Positions 2,637 to 38,274 of a stretch of DNA of 47,951 nt are shown in pieces. A program made the position numbers and the translations under genes. The notes below the pieces were generated by a model. That model saw only the letters and a list, made by a program, of their open reading frames with translations. It was not told the origin of the DNA and ran no database searches. Position 1 is the stretch's first letter, and every line of letters starts with the position of its first letter. This stretch comes from Acidobacteriota bacterium (GTDB lineage Bacteria; Acidobacteriota; Vicinamibacteria; Vicinamibacterales; CAVVIG01): positions 1 to 47,951 of the forward strand of contig JAHFUI010000012.1 of NCBI GenBank assembly GCA_023265175.1, given 5' to 3'.

Positions 2637-2924
2637 ATGGCGCTCGACGAACGCGACTTCTTCAACAACAAGAACGAGACGCGTACCGATAAGTTGACCT
2701 GCCCCCGGTGCAAGCGGGTGAACGATTATCAGATGCGCTGGGTGGTCCGGACGCGAAAGGAACGCATTCCCCCGGGCGCCGACGAGCGCGACCGCGCGCT
2801 GTTTGCCAAGCTGCGCGACTACATGATCCGCGTCGATGATTCGGTGACCTGCAAGACCTGCGGCAAGAAGTTCGACATCCCTTCCCAGCATTCGATGGTG
2901 TTCCTGCAGCAGGGTGCGGACTGA
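2637..2924 (+). CDS. Small zinc-ribbon protein of unknown function
   Basis: This 95-residue soluble protein has two CxxC knuckles, CPRC near residue 22 and CKTC near residue 76, about 50 residues apart. Together they could bind one zinc ion. The segment between them is rich in Arg and Asp. There is no signal peptide or membrane segment. It is divergent from lon and may share its promoter, which hints at a stress or proteostasis link but proves nothing. Its stop codon lies inside the foot of a large hairpin shared with the next, convergent gene. I do not recognise a named family. Confidence 0.75.
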   Translation: MALDERDFFNNKNETRTDKLTCPRCKRVNDYQMRWVVRTRKERIPPGADERDRALFAKLRDYMIRVDDSVTCKTCGKKFDIPSQHSMVFLQQGAD

Positions 2925-3007
2925 CGCTGTAATGCAAAATGTCTCATGCAGAATGCATCGGGCATTCTGAATGAGCATTTTGCATTTTGCATTTTGCATT
3001 ACGTCAG
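2921..3007. repeat. CATTTTG-repeat hairpin across two convergent stop codons
   Basis: The arms are AATGCAAAATG...CAGAATGC and GCATTCTG...CATTTTGCATT around a 4-6 nt loop, with only a few mismatches. The right arm holds three tandem CATTTTG units. The outer foot pairs CTGACG with CGTCAG and contains the stop codons of both flanking convergent genes. It may act as a two-way terminator, though it lacks an intrinsic U-tract design. Its inverted-tandem layout resembles the CTGGTTAT elements elsewhere in the window, with a different unit. Confidence 0.75.
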
Positions 3008-3723
3008 TACACGTAAGGCACCAGCCTCCATTTCACCTGCCGCGTGTACCGATCGTACTCGTCGCCGAATTCGGCGTGGAGCGAGCGTTCTTCCCACGGA
3101 ATGGCGATCAACAAGTACGCCGTGGCGATTGCCGCGAATGCGAGGCGGTCGCCGGTCATGAGCGCCGGGCCAAAGACCACGAGGAGCCACCCGAGATAGA
3201 TCGGGTGCCGGACGAAACGATACGGGCCTGCGATTTGCAGCCGTTCGGCACTGTCTGTGGGGTCCCTCTTTCCGCCTTCGCGTCGCTTCGGCGAGAGATG
3301 ACGGATTCCGGCAAGCTCGAGCACGTCGATTGTCTTGGCGGACCGGGCGATGAGCCAGACACCGAGCAACTGAACCAACGCGTGCGCGATGCCGAGCGAT
3401 CCGGCGTGTCGGTACACGACGCCGCCGACCGGCTGCCATGCTGCACACACCGCGATGAGGAGCAGGCTCGCCACCCAGACGTACACGGATCGCAGCATCG
3501 GGTGCGGAATGAATCGTGAGAGCCAGCCCTTCACGCGCGTGCGGGCGAACAGGCTGTGCTGCAGCGCGAACACGCTGAAGAGCAGCGCATCGAAGATGGA
3601 CGCCAGCGCGTTGGGGGCGTGCGGCGCCGACCAGGGGAAGATGAACGAGTACGCGCAAAACGCGAGCGAAGCGACGAACATGGCGCCGCCCAGCCACGCG
3701 AACGGGCGTTCGAATCTGGTCAT
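3004..3723 (-). CDS. NnrU/isoprenylcysteine methyltransferase-like membrane protein
   Basis: This is a 239-residue integral membrane protein with about five hydrophobic segments (for example LGGAMFVASLAFCAYSFIF and VYVWVASLLLIAVCAAW). The C-terminal motif GPYRFVRHPIYLGWLL followed by PWEERSLHAEFGDEYDRY is the SAM-binding signature of the ICMT/PEMT/NnrU superfamily. Members methylate small lipophilic or prenylated substrates at the membrane; the substrate here is unknown. The start codon is immediately next to, and its first codons (ATGACCAGA) resemble, the repeat unit of the adjoining hairpin element. A second ICMT-like protein lies 7 kb away. Confidence 0.8.
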   Translation of the reverse strand: MTRFERPFAWLGGAMFVASLAFCAYSFIFPWSAPHAPNALASIFDALLFSVFALQHSLFARTRVKGWLSRFIPHPMLRSVYVWVASLLLIAVCAAWQPVGGVVYRHAGSLGIAHALVQLLGVWLIARSAKTIDVLELAGIRHLSPKRREGGKRDPTDSAERLQIAGPYRFVRHPIYLGWLLVVFGPALMTGDRLAFAAIATAYLLIAIPWEERSLHAEFGDEYDRYTRQVKWRLVPYVY

Positions 3724-3824
3724 CTCGTCATCTGGTTATCTGGTTATCTGGTTATCTGGTTATTGGCGTCACGACAATCGAACACTCAATGACCAGATAA
3801 CCAGACGACCAGACAACCAGATAG
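3724..3824. repeat. CTGGTTAT inverted-tandem element, copy 1
   Basis: The left arm has four tandem CTGGTTAT units. A spacer containing GGCGTCACGACAATCGA follows, and the right arm carries the reverse-complement units (ATAACCAG and variants). The whole can fold into a long hairpin. It fills the divergent gap between the NnrU-like gene and fabF, so it touches the 5' end of both. Its spacer is nearly identical to that of copy 2. Confidence 0.9.
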
Positions 3825-3838
3825 TATAAGTTTTAAGC

Positions 3839-5113: not shown

Positions 5114-5120
5114 AACCTGA

Positions 5121-5235
5121 ATCTGGTTATCTGGTCATTTGGTTATCTGGTTATCTGGTTGTTGGCGTCACGACAATCGAGCAATCAATGACCAGATAAC
5201 CAGATAACCAGATAACCAGATAACCAGATAACCAA
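5121..5235. repeat. CTGGTTAT inverted-tandem element, copy 2
   Basis: The left arm has about five CTGGTTAT-type units. The spacer GGCGTCACGACAATCGA matches copy 1, and the right arm has about six ATAACCAG units. The array ends directly against the ATG of the next gene, so it takes the place of a ribosome-binding site. It forms most of the 122-bp gap between fabF and the FAD reductase gene. Confidence 0.92.
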
Positions 5236-10074: not shown

Positions 10075-10725
10075 ATGGACATCCGCGCACGCATCGTGAA
10101 ACGCGTTGCCCGGGAGCTGAAGGACGGCGACTACGTCAACCTCGGTATCGGCATGCCGACGATGGTCGCCAACTTCGTGCCGCCTGGCATCGACATCACG
10201 CTGCATTCGGAGAACGGCATGCTTGGCGTGGGACCGTATCCGCGCGAAGACGAGGTCGACCCGCTGTTGATCAACGCGGGCAAAGAGACGGTGACCGAAA
10301 TGCCGGGCTGCAGCTACTTCAGCAGCGCCGATTCGTTCGCGATGGTGCGCGGCGGGCACATCGATTTAACGGTTCTTGGCGCGCTGCAAGTCGATCAGGA
10401 AGGCAACCTCGCCAACTGGATGATCCCCGGTAAGATGGTGAAGGGCATGGGGGGCGCGATGGATCTCGTCGCCGGCGCGAAGAAGGTCATCGTCGCGATG
10501 GAACACACGACGCGCGATGGCGGCCACAAGATTCTCGCGCGATGCACGCTGCCGTTCACCGGTCTGAAAGTCGTGCACATGATCGTGACCGAGCTGGCGG
10601 TGATCGAGGTGACGCCGGCCGGGCTCGTGGTGCGCGAGATCGCCGTAGACACCACACTCGAGAAGGTCAAGGCCGCGACCGGCGCGCCGCTCACTGTTGC
10701 GCCTGCGCTCGGCACTTTCGAGTGA
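10075..10725 (+). CDS. scoB: 3-oxoacid CoA-transferase subunit B
   Basis: This 216-residue beta subunit of a class I CoA-transferase moves CoA from succinyl-CoA or acetyl-CoA to a 3-oxoacid such as acetoacetate. The catalytic Glu lies in [13 protein letters not shown] near residue 46. [19 protein letters not shown] and the C-terminal region are typical of ScoB/AtoA. A Shine-Dalgarno (CGGAGG) precedes the start. The A subunit is normally encoded directly upstream, but here the upstream gene is an unrelated divergent one, so this subunit is an orphan within the window. Confidence 0.92.
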
Positions 10726-10727
10726 GG

Positions 10728-10800
10728 CTGGAGGTCGGAGGCTCGGGCCTGGGAAAGCCTTGATGTCTGTCCAGCCTCCGGACTCTCGCCTCTAGCCTCG
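10728..10800. repeat. GCCTCNN short-repeat hairpin
   Basis: The left part reads GGCTGGAGGTCGGAGGCTCG. The right part reads CCAGCCTCCGG then GCCTCTAGCCTCG, a reverse-complement relation with spaced GCCTC units of about 7 bp. It fills the gap between the CoA-transferase and ICMT-like genes. The layout matches the inverted-tandem elements elsewhere, with a degenerate unit. Confidence 0.55.
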
Positions 10801-22272: not shown

Positions 22273-22354
22273 AATTTGGTTATCTGGTCTGGTTATCTGG
22301 TCATTTGGCTCCTCAATTGATCAATCAATGACCAGATAACCAGATGACCAGATT
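22273..22354. repeat. CTGGTTAT inverted-tandem element, copy 3
   Basis: The left arm has TTGGTTATCTGGTCTGG-type units. The spacer includes CAATTGATCAATCAATG, and the right arm has ACCAGATAACCAG-type units. It is shorter and more degenerate than copies 1 and 2, with a different left spacer but a similar right edge. It lies between the subtilase gene and the barrel gene. Confidence 0.85.
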
Positions 22355-23283: not shown

Positions 23284-23309
23284 GTGGATTCTTCATCGAC
23301 TGTTTTTTG

Positions 23310-23374
23310 CCACGAAAACACGAAAGCACGAAAAAGATCACGTCTGTCTTCTTCGTGTTTTCGTGTTTTCGTGG
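23310..23374. repeat. CACGAAAA inverted-tandem hairpin
   Basis: The left arm is CCACGAAAACACGAAAGCACG, followed by AA. The right arm is its near-perfect complement, built of TTCGTGTT 8-bp units, with a 19-nt spacer. It lies between the Cys-Cys gene and the ATPase gene. The architecture is the same as the CTGGTTAT elements, with a different 8-bp unit. Confidence 0.85.
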
Positions 23375-23395
23375 TTGCATTTGAATCTCGGTGAC

Positions 23396-24870: not shown

Positions 24871-26262
24871 ATGCGAGCGTTGCATTATGTGCACGCATCC
24901 ATGATCGCGGCAGTTCTCGTCGGAGCGCCGAGCGCGGCCCCGGCGCAGACGCCGGATGCACAGGCGTTGCGCAATGAGCCCAGCAACGCGCAGGCGTTGC
25001 GTGACGAAATCGACCAGCTCAGACGGGACTTCGATGCGGTGCGGCAGCAGTACGGCGATCGTCTCACCGCGCTCGAGACCAGACTCTCGGCGATCCAAGA
25101 CGGCGCGCCGCCCGCGGCGGCAGCCGTGCCTGCGCAGCCCGCCGTCGGGCAGAGGCCGACGGCCGAGGTGCCAGCGGGCGCGGCCGGCGTCGGCGGGCCC
25201 ACCGGCGCGCTACCGGTCTACGGGGCGGCGGTTGCCGGATCGAAGGTCTTCAATCCGGACATGGCGGTGATCGGTGATTTCCTTGGTGCCGCCGGACAGA
25301 ACAAGGCTGCCCGACAGAACAATGTCAGCCCGAATCCGGCGCTCGAGATGCATGAGTCGGAAGCCTCGTTCCAGGCGGTGGTCGATCCCTACGCGCGCGC
25401 CGATTTCTTCATTTCGTTCGGCGAGGAAGGCGTCAACCTCGAGGAAGGCTTCGTGACGTTCACGTCCCTGCCGGGAGGTCTTCTGACGAAAGTGGGCAAA
25501 ATGCGCGCCGCTTTCGGCAAGGTCAACGGCCTCCATAACCACCTGCTCCCGTGGACCGATCGCCCGCTGGTGATCAACAACCTCGTGGGAGGCGAAGACG
25601 GCATCGATGACGCCGGCATCTCGGTAGCGCGGTTGATTCCAAATCCATGGATGTTTCTCGAGGCGACCGGTCAGGTGTTCCGGGGCGACTCCGGCGCGGA
25701 TCCGAACGGGAACCCGTTGTTCAAGACGACCCAGCGCGGGGAGCTCAGCTACGTCGGGCACCTCCGTGCCTATCAGGACCTCACCGACAACGCCAACATC
25801 GACCTCGGGTTCTCGTACTCGCGCGGCCATAATGGCGCGAGCAACGGCAATCTCGTGGATCCAGGTTCGTTGGTCACGCAGCTGTACGGCATCGATGCGA
25901 CGTATCGATGGAAGCCGCTGCAGCGATCGATTTATCAGTCGTTCGTCGGCCGCACCGAGTGGATCTGGAGCCGCCGCGATCAGTTGACGAGCGTCCAGAG
26001 TGGCTCGGGCATGTACCTCTCGGGCGATTATCAGTTCGGGCGGCGCTGGTTCGCGGGCGCCCGATACGATCGCGCGAACCGCGCGGACGTTGCGTCGATG
26101 CTCGACACCGGCCAGTCGCTCGTGCTCACGTACTGGCCCAGCGAGTTCAGCCAGGTGCGCGGTCAATACCGGCGCACGGCGTACGCGATCGGACCGGCCG
26201 ACAACGAGCTCCTGTTCCAGTTCCAGTTTGCCATCGGGGCGCACGGCGCGCACCCGTTTTAG
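24871..26262 (+). CDS. Porin-like outer-membrane protein of the metal-uptake cluster
   Basis: This 463-residue protein has a signal peptide ending APAQ, a coiled coil (LRDEIDQLRRDFDAVRQQYG and on, residues ~45-75) and an Ala/Pro-rich linker. The rest is an all-strand barrel ending in ELLFQFQFAIGAHGAHPF. The coiled coil may reach toward peptidoglycan or form a trimer. GGAGGAG precedes the start. The binding-protein and permease genes follow on the same strand, so it likely admits a metal ion or its chelate across the outer membrane. Confidence 0.8.
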   Translation: MRALHYVHASMIAAVLVGAPSAAPAQTPDAQALRNEPSNAQALRDEIDQLRRDFDAVRQQYGDRLTALETRLSAIQDGAPPAAAAVPAQPAVGQRPTAEVPAGAAGVGGPTGALPVYGAAVAGSKVFNPDMAVIGDFLGAAGQNKAARQNNVSPNPALEMHESEASFQAVVDPYARADFFISFGEEGVNLEEGFVTFTSLPGGLLTKVGKMRAAFGKVNGLHNHLLPWTDRPLVINNLVGGEDGIDDAGISVARLIPNPWMFLEATGQVFRGDSGADPNGNPLFKTTQRGELSYVGHLRAYQDLTDNANIDLGFSYSRGHNGASNGNLVDPGSLVTQLYGIDATYRWKPLQRSIYQSFVGRTEWIWSRRDQLTSVQSGSGMYLSGDYQFGRRWFAGARYDRANRADVASMLDTGQSLVLTYWPSEFSQVRGQYRRTAYAIGPADNELLFQFQFAIGAHGAHPF

Positions 26263-26343
26263 TCGTCAGTCGTCAGTCGTCAGTCGTCAGTCATCAGTCG
26301 GCAGTCGTTGGTCGGCAGTCGTTGGTCGGCAGTCGTTGGTCGG
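26263..26343. repeat. CAGTCGT tandem array
   Basis: Five 7-bp CAGTCGT-type units are followed by three 14-bp units (CGGCAGTCGTTGGT). The array starts directly after the porin stop codon. It has no inverted arm, unlike most other arrays here. It lies between two genes that should be co-transcribed, so it may form a spacer or structure in the mRNA. Confidence 0.85.
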
Positions 26344-31830: not shown

Positions 31831-32412
31831 TTACTTCTTGGCTAGAATCTCGTCGAAGAACTTTGTCGCAGCCTCGTCACCCGATCGGGCGAGCGCCGAC
31901 ATTGCCGCTCTCTTGATGTTGATATCTTTCGAGGTCCGTGCCATCTGCACCAGCCACGCGACGCCGTCCGCTGGCTGCAGATCGGTCAGCCAGACGAGCG
32001 GCAACCCACCTGCGTCGATGTCGCACTCCGGGGTGAACGATCGGAGGCGGACGATCTCGCCGGCTTCCATCCGCGCCAGGACATAGAACTCCGAGGGCGG
32101 TTCCAGCAGTACTCGCGAGCCGTTGCCGCCGCAGGTGCGCCGCGCGCCCGGCGCGGCCGCGAGGCGATACCCGATCCACGCTGGCATGTTGGCCGCCGCG
32201 ACCGACTGGACGACGCGGTCGACGCCCTGAGCGGCCGACCGCATGTCCACTTTCGCGTTGGTGACCGGTGCCTGCGCACTCAGCACGGCAGCACCCAGCA
32301 CGCCAGCACCCAGCACGAGCCCCTGAGCACCCAGCACCGCAGCATCCGGCACCAAGCACCCGCACGCAGCACGGAGCATCCCGCACGCAGCACGCAGCAT
32401 TCGGCATTTCAT
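31831..32412 (-). CDS. Secreted HEAT-type protein with repeat-derived signal peptide
   Basis: The frame encodes 193 residues. The first ~45 form an Ala/Leu-rich signal-like stretch encoded by degenerate GTGCTG-type tandem repeats. The mature part contains WIGYRLAAAPGARRTCGGNG, an FTPECDIDAGGLPLVWL segment and a final HEAT helix pair (RAAMSALARSGDEAATKFFDE). The start overlaps the upstream HEAT gene's stop (ATGA). It is the fourth gene of the sigma/anti-sigma operon, and its molecular role is unknown. Confidence 0.7.
   Translation of the reverse strand: MKCRMLRAACGMLRAACGCLVPDAAVLGAQGLVLGAGVLGAAVLSAQAPVTNAKVDMRSAAQGVDRVVQSVAAANMPAWIGYRLAAAPGARRTCGGNGSRVLLEPPSEFYVLARMEAGEIVRLRSFTPECDIDAGGLPLVWLTDLQPADGVAWLVQMARTSKDINIKRAAMSALARSGDEAATKFFDEILAKK
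32282..32400. repeat. AGCACCC/GCACGCA short tandem repeats inside a coding region
   Basis: About a dozen degenerate 7-8 bp units (CAGCACC, AGCACGC, GCACGCA) run through the 5' part of the secreted HEAT gene. They encode the repetitive signal sequence (MLRAACGMLRAACG, VLGAQGLVLGAGVLGAA). Unlike other arrays here, this one is coding and has no clear inverted arm. Confidence 0.8.
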
Positions 32413-35977: not shown

Positions 35978-36856
35978 CTATCGGGCCGGCCGACTCAGGT
36001 GGGCCTCAATCTGCGGCACGGCGGCGACGACGATGTCGCCGACGACTTGCAGGCTTCTGGCGCTGACCGCGTCCAGGGTATCGCCCGCGGTGTGCCACTG
36101 CGGATATTCCAGATCGATGATGTCGACCGAGGGAACGCCGGCTTTCAGGAACGGCAGGTGGTCATCCTCGATTTCGGTCGAGCTCGGCACGAAGACAGTG
36201 TCGAGCTTCTGCCGGCGAGCCGCGTCCCAAACTGCGTCCGTCAGCCACGGGGTCGAGTTCGTGTCGCGCCTGATGCGCAGATCGCGGTCGCCGATCATAT
36301 CGACGAGCACCATTGCCTTCAGGGTGGCGAGCGAGCCGTCGCGCCGGGCGGCATCCACATAGTGGCGGCTGCCGTACGTGTTGTCGGTGCCCGCCCAGAT
36401 CTCGTTGACCGCTTCCTCGCCATCGAGAAACAGCACCTCGATCGTCAAGGCGTTCTTTCGGGCCTTGAGCACCCGGGCCAGCTCGATCAGAAACGCCGCG
36501 CTCGATCCGCCGTCGCTCGCGCCGACGAATCGGAACCGGGTGAAGCGCTTCGTATCGTAGTGTCCCGCGAAGACGATGCGCTCTTTTCTGGCGCCGGGGA
36601 TCGTGGCGATGAGGTTCACCATCGGCATCTTGCCGATCGGCGTGTCGTCGATCCACTTCTGCTCGACAGCCTTCAATCCCGCCGCGGCGAGCTGGTCCTT
36701 GACATAGGTGCGCGCCAGCTCGATCGCGGCCGTGCCCGACGGCCGCGGTCCGATGGCCACGAGCTGGCGCAGATGCTCCCAGGCACGATTCGAATCGAAG
36801 TGGACCGCCGCGGGCGTTTGAAGCAGGAGCGCCGCGGCCAGAAGGAGTCTCAGCAT
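35978..36856 (-). CDS. M28-family peptidase, glutaminyl-cyclase-like
   Basis: This 292-residue exported protein has a short signal (MLRLLLAAALLLQTPA). Zinc-site motifs include FAGHYDTKRF near residue 95, VGASDGGSSAAFLIELA near 112, FLDGEEAVNEIW near 144, IEDDHLPFLKAGVPSVDII near 228 and QWHTAGDTLDAVS near 255. This order, especially DDH.PFL and WHT..D, matches animal-type glutaminyl-peptide cyclotransferases as well as M28 aminopeptidases. It may form N-terminal pyroglutamate on secreted proteins. The start codon directly touches a repeat element. Confidence 0.82.
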   Translation of the reverse strand: MLRLLLAAALLLQTPAAVHFDSNRAWEHLRQLVAIGPRPSGTAAIELARTYVKDQLAAAGLKAVEQKWIDDTPIGKMPMVNLIATIPGARKERIVFAGHYDTKRFTRFRFVGASDGGSSAAFLIELARVLKARKNALTIEVLFLDGEEAVNEIWAGTDNTYGSRHYVDAARRDGSLATLKAMVLVDMIGDRDLRIRRDTNSTPWLTDAVWDAARRQKLDTVFVPSSTEIEDDHLPFLKAGVPSVDIIDLEYPQWHTAGDTLDAVSARSLQVVGDIVVAAVPQIEAHLSRPAR

Positions 36857-36945
36857 CTGGTTATCTCGTCATTTGGTTATCTGGTTATTGATCGGATCAT
36901 TGAAACAATCATTGACCAGATGATCAGATAACCAGATGATCAAAT
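36857..36945. repeat. CTGGTTAT inverted-tandem element, copy 5
   Basis: The left arm starts immediately after the CAT (start codon complement) of the peptidase gene, with CTGGTTATCTCGTCATTTGG-type units. The spacer includes ATTGATCGGATCATTG, and the right arm has ACCAGATGATCAGATAACC-type units up to the citrate synthase stop codon. It is the most degenerate of the five. Confidence 0.85.
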
Positions 36946-38243: not shown

Positions 38244-38274
38244 AAGTTAAAAGTCAAAAGTTAAAAGTTGAAAA
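38244..38274. repeat. AAAAGTT short tandem array before citrate synthase
   Basis: Four 7-8 bp units of the form AAAAGTT/AAAAGTC/AAAAGTTG occupy the leader of the citrate synthase gene, between it and the yacG stop codon. No inverted arm is evident. It is AT-rich in otherwise GC-rich DNA and may affect transcript folding. Confidence 0.75.

What the first reader, a model, noticed from the sequence alone, without database searches (positions are those of the whole stretch)
2921..3007. Several unrelated 7-8 bp units share one architecture
Beyond CTGGTTAT, arrays of CATTTTG (2921-3007), CACGAAAA (23310-23374), GCCTCNN (10728-10800), CAGTCGT (26263-26343), AAAAGTT (38244-38274) and AGCACCC (32282-32400) occupy gene gaps or a gene's 5' end. 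The first three also face an inverted array across a spacer. Unit length is held at 7-8 bp while sequence is not. This suggests a common process that makes or expands short tandem units, rather than one mobile sequence family.
Basis: partly seen in the sequence, partly recalled or inferred. Interest (0 to 1): 0.75.

Follow-up and report, generated by a model that had tools for sequence, protein, structure and literature searches.

The report
Families of 7-8 bp hairpin satellites
The gaps between genes of this soil bacterium (an Acidobacteriota species) are filled by many different tiny repeated words of 7 or 8 letters, often facing their mirror image to form hairpins, and related species carry different words in the same gap, so these are fast-changing 'satellite' sequences that spread by a process nobody has identified.

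Summary
In 402 kb of this Acidobacteriota genome (window plus samples), 59 of 66 tandem arrays between genes have a 7- or 8-bp period or its double. Shuffles give almost none at 7 or 8, and 200 kb of E. coli gives no intergenic array. Of 59 arrays tested, 25 face an inverted arm of the same unit within 120 bp, against 1.5% for units of other families.

The units are not arbitrary. Most belong to a few dispersed families that also occur in relatives: ATCTGGTY, CAGTCGN, AATTNNG, AATGCAN, CACGAANN. In each family examined, arm order is fixed within a lineage (43 of 43 ATCTGGTY pairs). Orthologous gaps in sister species hold different units, while distant orthologs have short gaps without arrays.

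Arms of one element are no more alike than arms of different elements. Units repeat at two-unit spacing. Two pairs of elements share near-identical loops; in the pair on different contigs the flanks are unrelated. No target-site duplication, Y1 transposase or intact reverse transcriptase was found.

Best reading: several families of hairpin satellites that grow by slippage or unequal recombination and spread by templated copying. The architecture is known in Xanthomonas (GGGAATC heptamers). The many units per genome, the 8-mers and the unit replacement at orthologous gaps appear new.

The parts
2925..3003 (.). AATGCAA / CATTTTG inverted array in the gap between convergent genes (units best at 2975-3000)
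   Evidence: RNA fold z -6.3
3714..3823 (.). ATCTGGTY array - 31-nt loop - RACCAGAT array, divergent gap upstream of the FabF-like gene
   Evidence: fold z -9.8
5121..5235 (.). ATCTGGTY - loop - RACCAGAT element between the FabF-like gene and the next gene; loop nearly identical to that at 3714-3823; other units fill this gap in sister species
   Evidence: fold z -15.9
10724..10800 (.). GAGGCTN array facing GCCTCNN array (weak)
   Evidence: fold z -3.1
22274..22354 (.). ATYTGGTY - loop - RACCAGAT element
23305..23378 (.). CACGAANN array - loop - NNTTCGTG array
   Evidence: fold z -8.7
26261..26343 (+). CAGTCGN array, 28-bp (4-unit) higher-order repeat, no inverted arm; 469 x3 matches of this unit in the genome
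28232..28333 (.). ATCTGGTY - loop - RACCAGAT element
   Evidence: fold z -10.6
32276..32399 (.). AGCACCC-type array over the 5' end of a minus-strand gene
36855..36945 (.). ATCTGGTY - loop - RACCAGAT element
   Evidence: fold z -5.8
38244..38273 (+). AAAAGTY array; the strict three-unit pattern is unique in the genome

Best explanation
These are several families of 'hairpin satellites'. Each element is a tandem array of a 7- or 8-bp unit, in many cases followed by a loop of about 20-60 nt and an inverted array of the same unit, and it fills a gap between genes. SHOWN: the length rule, the inverted pairing, the few dispersed families per genome, the fixed arm order, the independent evolution of the two arms, a two-unit repeat pattern within arms, near-identical loops in two pairs of elements, and arrays of different units in one orthologous gap of sister species. 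INFERRED: arrays grow and shrink by replication slippage or unequal recombination, often in two-unit (14-16 bp) steps. Whole elements spread to other gaps by templated copying (template switching or gene conversion at short matches to the unit), without a dedicated transposase. They persist mainly because intergenic gaps tolerate them. The host-level reason for 7-8 bp is unknown; a polymerase-footprint idea exists in the literature.
For: Period excess and inverted arms. Few multi-copy families: 50 of 66 arrays; genome counts of the x3 patterns ATCTGGTY 116, CAGTCGN 469, CACGAA 85, AATTNNG 87, with reversed-pattern controls at 0. Fixed polarity: 43 of 43 ATCTGGTY pairs, 4 of 4 AATTNNG pairs, 9 of 9 listed CACGAA pairs in families f1 and f37. 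Arm copy numbers uncorrelated, r = -0.17; opposite arms of one element no more alike than arms of different elements, 0.31 v 0.33. Identical units at distance 2: 0.51, against 0.35 +/- 0.03 across-arm and 0.39 +/- 0.03 within-arm shuffles. Loops of L015 and L020, on different contigs with unrelated flanks, differ at one of 31 positions in inverted orientation; the window loops at 3714 and 5121 are also near-identical. No target-site duplication: 3.50 v 3.47 +/- 0.13. No Y1 transposase; one sub-cutoff reverse-transcriptase fragment with a stop. Lineage-specific unit variants: ATCTGGTY x3 116 in own and at most 9 in relatives; ATYGGGTN x3 4 in own and up to 79 in relatives.
Against: No copying or slippage event was observed directly: no same-species genomes were available. 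Only two pairs of elements share a near-identical loop, and one of those pairs is 1.4 kb apart. The two-unit periodicity was measured for one family. Arrays are somewhat rarer in divergent gaps (3/57 v 44/322, Fisher p = 0.08), which could mean function or simply that promoters are avoided. An unidentified transposase acting in trans is not excluded.
Confidence: 0.5

Rival explanations
1. REP/BIME- or MITE-like elements: palindromic non-autonomous elements moved by a transposase acting in trans, with the inverted arrays serving as terminal repeats.
For: Intergenic, palindromic, dispersed, fixed polarity, near-identical loops in two pairs.
Against: No Y1 (IS200/RAYT) transposase in a 97% complete genome; no target-site duplication and no conserved sequence outside the arms; arms of 2-12 units with uncorrelated length.
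Confidence: 0.15
2. In-situ slippage only: each gap makes its own array from local sequence by polymerase slippage with a 7-8 nt footprint; the inverted arms start from a small pre-existing hairpin.
For: Length rule; a polymerase-footprint hypothesis for bacterial heptamers is reported in PMC4692102; a single ATCTGGT unit sits at the orthologous divergent gap of L095, and one ACCAGAT unit in L099, without an array.
Against: The same few units dominate across the genome and recur in other families of the phylum; a near-identical loop at unrelated flanks; fixed polarity.
Confidence: 0.15
3. Selected function: the hairpins act as transcription terminators, mRNA stabilisers or arrays of protein-binding sites, and selection keeps the structure while sequence changes.
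For: Strong predicted RNA hairpins (z -3 to -16); intergenic; somewhat rarer in divergent gaps; different units with the same architecture in one orthologous gap.
Against: Most orthologous gaps have no array and many are under 60 bp; 34 of 59 arrays have no strong inverted arm; arms of an element do not co-vary.
Confidence: 0.15
4. Made by an RNA-templated polymerase such as a DRT10/telomerase-like reverse transcriptase that adds short tandem repeats.
For: DRT10 makes tandem-repeat cDNA, 9 nt in one system and other lengths in others (PMC12632851).
Against: The only RVT_1 match in the genome is a fragment below cut-off with a stop; more than ten unit families in one genome would need many templates.
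Confidence: 0.03

Closest known systems
GGGAATC heptamer repeats of Xanthomonas and GGGGA(C/T)T of Nostoc (Rehm et al. 2015, PMC4692102)
   Same: Intergenic arrays with a fixed 7-bp period, 2-26 units, about 185 per genome; 70-75 cases of two arrays in convergent orientation forming inverted repeats; mostly between the same genes in two species with length and sequence variation; under-represented between divergent genes.
   Different: One G-rich, quadruplex-forming unit per lineage there; here many unit families in one genome, none quadruplex-like in the main families, 8-mers as common as 7-mers, and different units in the same orthologous gap.
TAACTGA direct repeats of Beggiatoaceae (MacGregor 2015, PMC4679880)
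   Same: Intergenic heptamer arrays, often ending next to start codons; patchy distribution across phyla; no mechanism known.
   Different: Essentially one unit and only one indirect (inverted) repeat among 169 sets; here inverted pairing is common.
Cyanobacterial short tandem heptanucleotides (Calothrix; noted in PMC4692102)
   Same: Several different heptamers in one genome.
   Different: Inverted pairing and orthologous gap comparison are not described in the text read here.
REP/BIME elements
   Same: Intergenic palindromic dispersed repeats.
   Different: No Y1 transposase, arms built of tandem 7-8 bp units, variable arm length.
Borg tandem repeats (PMC9879509)
   Same: Many different tandem units in one genome, arising independently, fast evolving.
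   Different: Perfect units of varied and longer length, direct only, about half inside genes.

Membership tests
Intergenic heptamer SSRs with inverted pairs (Xanthomonas/Nostoc type) | Short tandem units of fixed 7-bp length, mostly intergenic | tested here: met
   59 of 66 non-coding arrays are period 7/8/14/16; few in CDS
Intergenic heptamer SSRs with inverted pairs (Xanthomonas/Nostoc type) | Frequent convergent inverted partner array | tested here: met
   25 of 59 v 1.5% control; 43 of 43 same polarity
Intergenic heptamer SSRs with inverted pairs (Xanthomonas/Nostoc type) | G-rich unit able to form a quadruplex | tested here: not met
   By inspection the main units ATCTGGTY, CAGTCGN, AATTNNG, AATGCAN and CACGAANN have no G run of 3 or more
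REP/BIME (RAYT-mobilised) | Y1 (TnpA_REP) transposase in the genome | tested here: not met
   PF01797: 0 matches in own genome, found in 5 of 14 controls
REP/BIME (RAYT-mobilised) | Fixed 20-40 bp palindromic unit with a GTAG/CGTC-type tag | tested here: not met
   Arms are 2-12 tandem 8-mers of variable length; no conserved sequence was seen outside the arms, though the tag itself was not searched for
MITE | Target-site duplication flanking terminal inverted repeats | tested here: not met
   Longest shared flank word 3.50 v 3.47 +/- 0.13 control in 40 elements
DRT10/telomerase-like products | A cognate reverse transcriptase | tested here: not met
   One RVT_1 fragment below cut-off with a stop codon; genome 97% complete
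Phase-variable contingency repeats | Copy number differs between strains and switches expression | not testable with these tools
   No same-species genomes available

The most novel reading that the evidence does not exclude
A transposase-free process with a built-in 7-8 bp (or 14-16 bp) step creates, homogenises and spreads families of inverted short-unit satellites through bacterial gene gaps, so that sister species carry different words in the same gap. This would be bacterial satellite DNA evolving by concerted evolution.
Probability: 0.3. Interest if true: 0.8.

Novelty: new variant of a known kind. Interest (0 to 1): 0.5.

Why it matters
Over-representation of 7-bp repeats in bacterial genomes has been noted for years without an explanation. 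A genome with many unit families, roughly 800 arrays by extrapolation, and sister species that carry different units in the same gap is a natural experiment. It separates what is constant (unit length, polarity, inverted pairing) from what is free (sequence), and makes the origin question testable. It also warns that intergenic hairpins in such genomes should not be read automatically as terminators or regulatory RNAs.

Tried and rejected
(2) Y1 transposase and reverse transcriptase as drivers: absent or broken. (3) Loss of the hairpin nuclease SbcCD as a permissive factor: SbcD is absent here, but it is above cut-off in only 35 of 297 Acidobacteriota, and its presence does not differ between genomes with and without CACGAA/CAGTCG arrays (4/30 v 31/267, Fisher p = 0.77). 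Rejected. (4) Fold-back copying of one arm onto the other: no mirrored variants, arms of one element no more alike than random arms. Rejected. (5) Target-site duplications: none. (6) Local spreading, with loops more alike nearby: no effect beyond the one adjacent pair in the window. (7) Literature searches for descriptions in Acidobacteriota found none; a further search on Xanthomonas heptamers after 2016 found nothing.

Full report
WHAT WAS CHECKED. The window is contig C202 of a 4.92 Mb, 308-contig draft genome (97% complete). Orthologs of its FabF-like gene come mostly from Acidobacteria soil MAGs, several labelled gp6 or Luteitalea, so it is read as an Acidobacteriota gp6 (Vicinamibacteria) genome. 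Five ATCTGGTY elements lie in the same window.

IS IT MORE THAN CHANCE? In 402 kb (window plus 20 sampled stretches) Tandem Repeats Finder gives 21 period-7 and 22 period-8 arrays scoring >=40, against 0.4 and 0.2 in order-3 Markov sequence; periods 14 and 16 give 20 and 12 against 4.8 and 3.8. With a simple gene caller, 59 of 66 arrays outside genes have period 7, 8, 14 or 16. Autocorrelation inside gaps peaks at lags 7, 8, 14 and 21. The same detector finds no intergenic array in 29.6 kb of non-coding E. coli DNA. A partner array of the reverse-complement unit (two or more units, >=85% identity, within 120 bp) accompanies 25 of 59 arrays, against 1.5% when units of other families are tested on the same flanks. 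Predicted RNA hairpins are far more stable than shuffles for six of seven window elements and marginal for GAGGCTN.

ANATOMY. The best-sampled family is [ATCTGGTY]n - loop - [RACCAGAT]n. Of 43 distinct paired elements, all have this arm order and none the reverse. Copy number per arm is 2-12 and uncorrelated between arms (r = -0.17). Unit variants are not mirrored between arms, and opposite arms of one element are no more alike than arms of different elements (0.31 v 0.33). Within arms, identical units are in excess at distance two (0.51 v 0.35 +/- 0.03 and 0.39 +/- 0.03 in two shuffles) but not at distance one, so the duplicating block is often a dimer. Elements fill gaps nearly from stop codon to start codon. 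They occur in 13% of co-directional, 16% of convergent and 5% of divergent gaps (divergent v rest p = 0.08).

FAMILIES, NOT RANDOM UNITS. In the sample 50 of 66 arrays fall in nine multi-copy unit families. Genome-wide matches to three-unit patterns are 116 for ATCTGGTY, 469 for CAGTCGN, 85 for CACGAA and 87 for AATTNNG, with zero for the reversed control patterns. AAAAGTY x3 matches once. CACGAA and CAGTCG arrays recur in 16 and 19 of 297 Acidobacteriota genomes from several families. Polarity is kept across genera: nine of nine close CACGAA pairs listed in families f1 and f37 are CACGAA-first, while the two close pairs read in family f68 are reversed (read from the coordinates). Variants are lineage-specific: ATCTGGTY x3 is abundant here and scarce in 60 relatives, while ATYGGGTN x3 is scarce here (4) and abundant in some relatives (up to 79). 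Genome G283 instead carries 199 copies of GCTGACN x3, seen as the reversed control.

SAME GAP, DIFFERENT WORD. The gap after the FabF-like gene (window 5114-5235) was compared across 37 loci. Distant orthologs mostly have gaps of about 2-60 bp without arrays. In close relatives the gap is usually 110-370 bp and holds inverted arrays: ATCTGGTY (window), AATCGGGT (L091, L095, L097), a mixed ATTGGGTA type (L092), CACGAANN (L094), a 9-mer with a 7-mer (L096), GACAGTT (L101); L127 holds an AATTGGGT-type array. An AAAAGTT pair lies downstream of the same gene in L098, whose contig ends there. The divergent gap upstream shows ATCTGGT units (window, L091, L125), TTTCAGC (L096) and CACCAAYT (L105); L095 has a single ATCTGGT and L099 a single ACCAGAT unit there, without an array. 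Whether these are replacements or independent arrivals cannot be told from these data.

SPREADING. Two elements on different contigs (L015, L020) share a 31-nt loop with one difference, in inverted orientation, while their flanks are unrelated. The two window elements at 3714 and 5121 also share a near-identical loop. Loops in general are more alike than shuffles (mean score 9.7 v 6.2), though part of this may come from degenerate units at the loop edges. Flanks of 40 elements carry no target-site duplication and no extra terminal repeat. The genome has no Y1 transposase and only a broken, sub-cutoff reverse-transcriptase fragment. SbcD is absent, but it is missing from most of the phylum and unrelated to array presence.

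MECHANISM. The best-supported reading is hairpin satellites that expand and contract by slippage or unequal recombination and spread by templated copying without a dedicated transposase. The anatomy and comparative facts are shown; the two processes are inferred. The main gap is the lack of same-species genomes. Transposition in trans, purely local slippage and selected function remain open, with the counter-evidence given in the rivals.

KNOWN OR NEW. Inverted, intergenic heptamer arrays are known from Xanthomonas (GGGAATC, 70-75 convergent pairs; PMC4692102). Heptamer over-representation in bacteria and a polymerase-footprint hypothesis are reported there. TAACTGA arrays (PMC4679880) are a second relative. 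What appears new here is the number of unit families in one genome, 8-mers on a par with 7-mers, fixed polarity with independent arms, and different units in one orthologous gap of sister species. Searches of the held library found no description in Acidobacteriota; subscription literature was not covered.

Noticed in passing
G283 (another Acidobacteriota genome): 199 matches to GCTGACNGCTGACNGCTGAC, i.e. a different heptamer amplified in a different lineage; it surfaced only as the reversed control of the CAGTCG search.
   Followed up: no
window 26261-26343: The CAGTCGN array carries a 28-bp (four-unit) higher-order repeat of three copies, suggesting duplication of multi-unit blocks.
   Followed up: partly
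L091 4662-4889; L096 7-bp/9-bp arrays after the FabF-like gene; L031 9537-9595; L070 9365-9651: 9-bp relatives (CACAAAGNN, CACGGAGGA, AGGTTCTCN, CGACCTACC), some with inverted arms, occur beside the 7- and 8-bp families; CACGAANN (8) and CACAAAGNN/CACGGAGNN (9) look like one superfamily with different period.
   Followed up: no
window 3820-3838 and orthologs: A TATAAT-like -10 element (tACTATA/AGTATAAG) just upstream of the FabF-like start codon is conserved in nearly all orthologs; in the window the array ends directly against it.
   Followed up: no
L102 (CALQBJ020000040.1): A contig titled Bifidobacterium breve MAG encodes a 79% identical ortholog of an Acidobacteriota gene; the record looks mislabelled or contaminated.
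   Followed up: no
Canonical SbcD (TIGR00619 above cut-off) is found in only 35 of 297 Acidobacteriota genomes; many others have only partial, weak matches.
   Followed up: partly
L148 (G000:C55:30411-30623): Reverse-transcriptase fragment with an in-frame TGA, the only RVT_1 match in the genome.
   Followed up: no
L096, gap orthologous to window 2925-3003: A different repeat type fills this gap: repeated copies of a GGTCCGGCTAAAGCCGGACACTACGTACTGA-like unit, itself containing a short palindrome.
   Followed up: no
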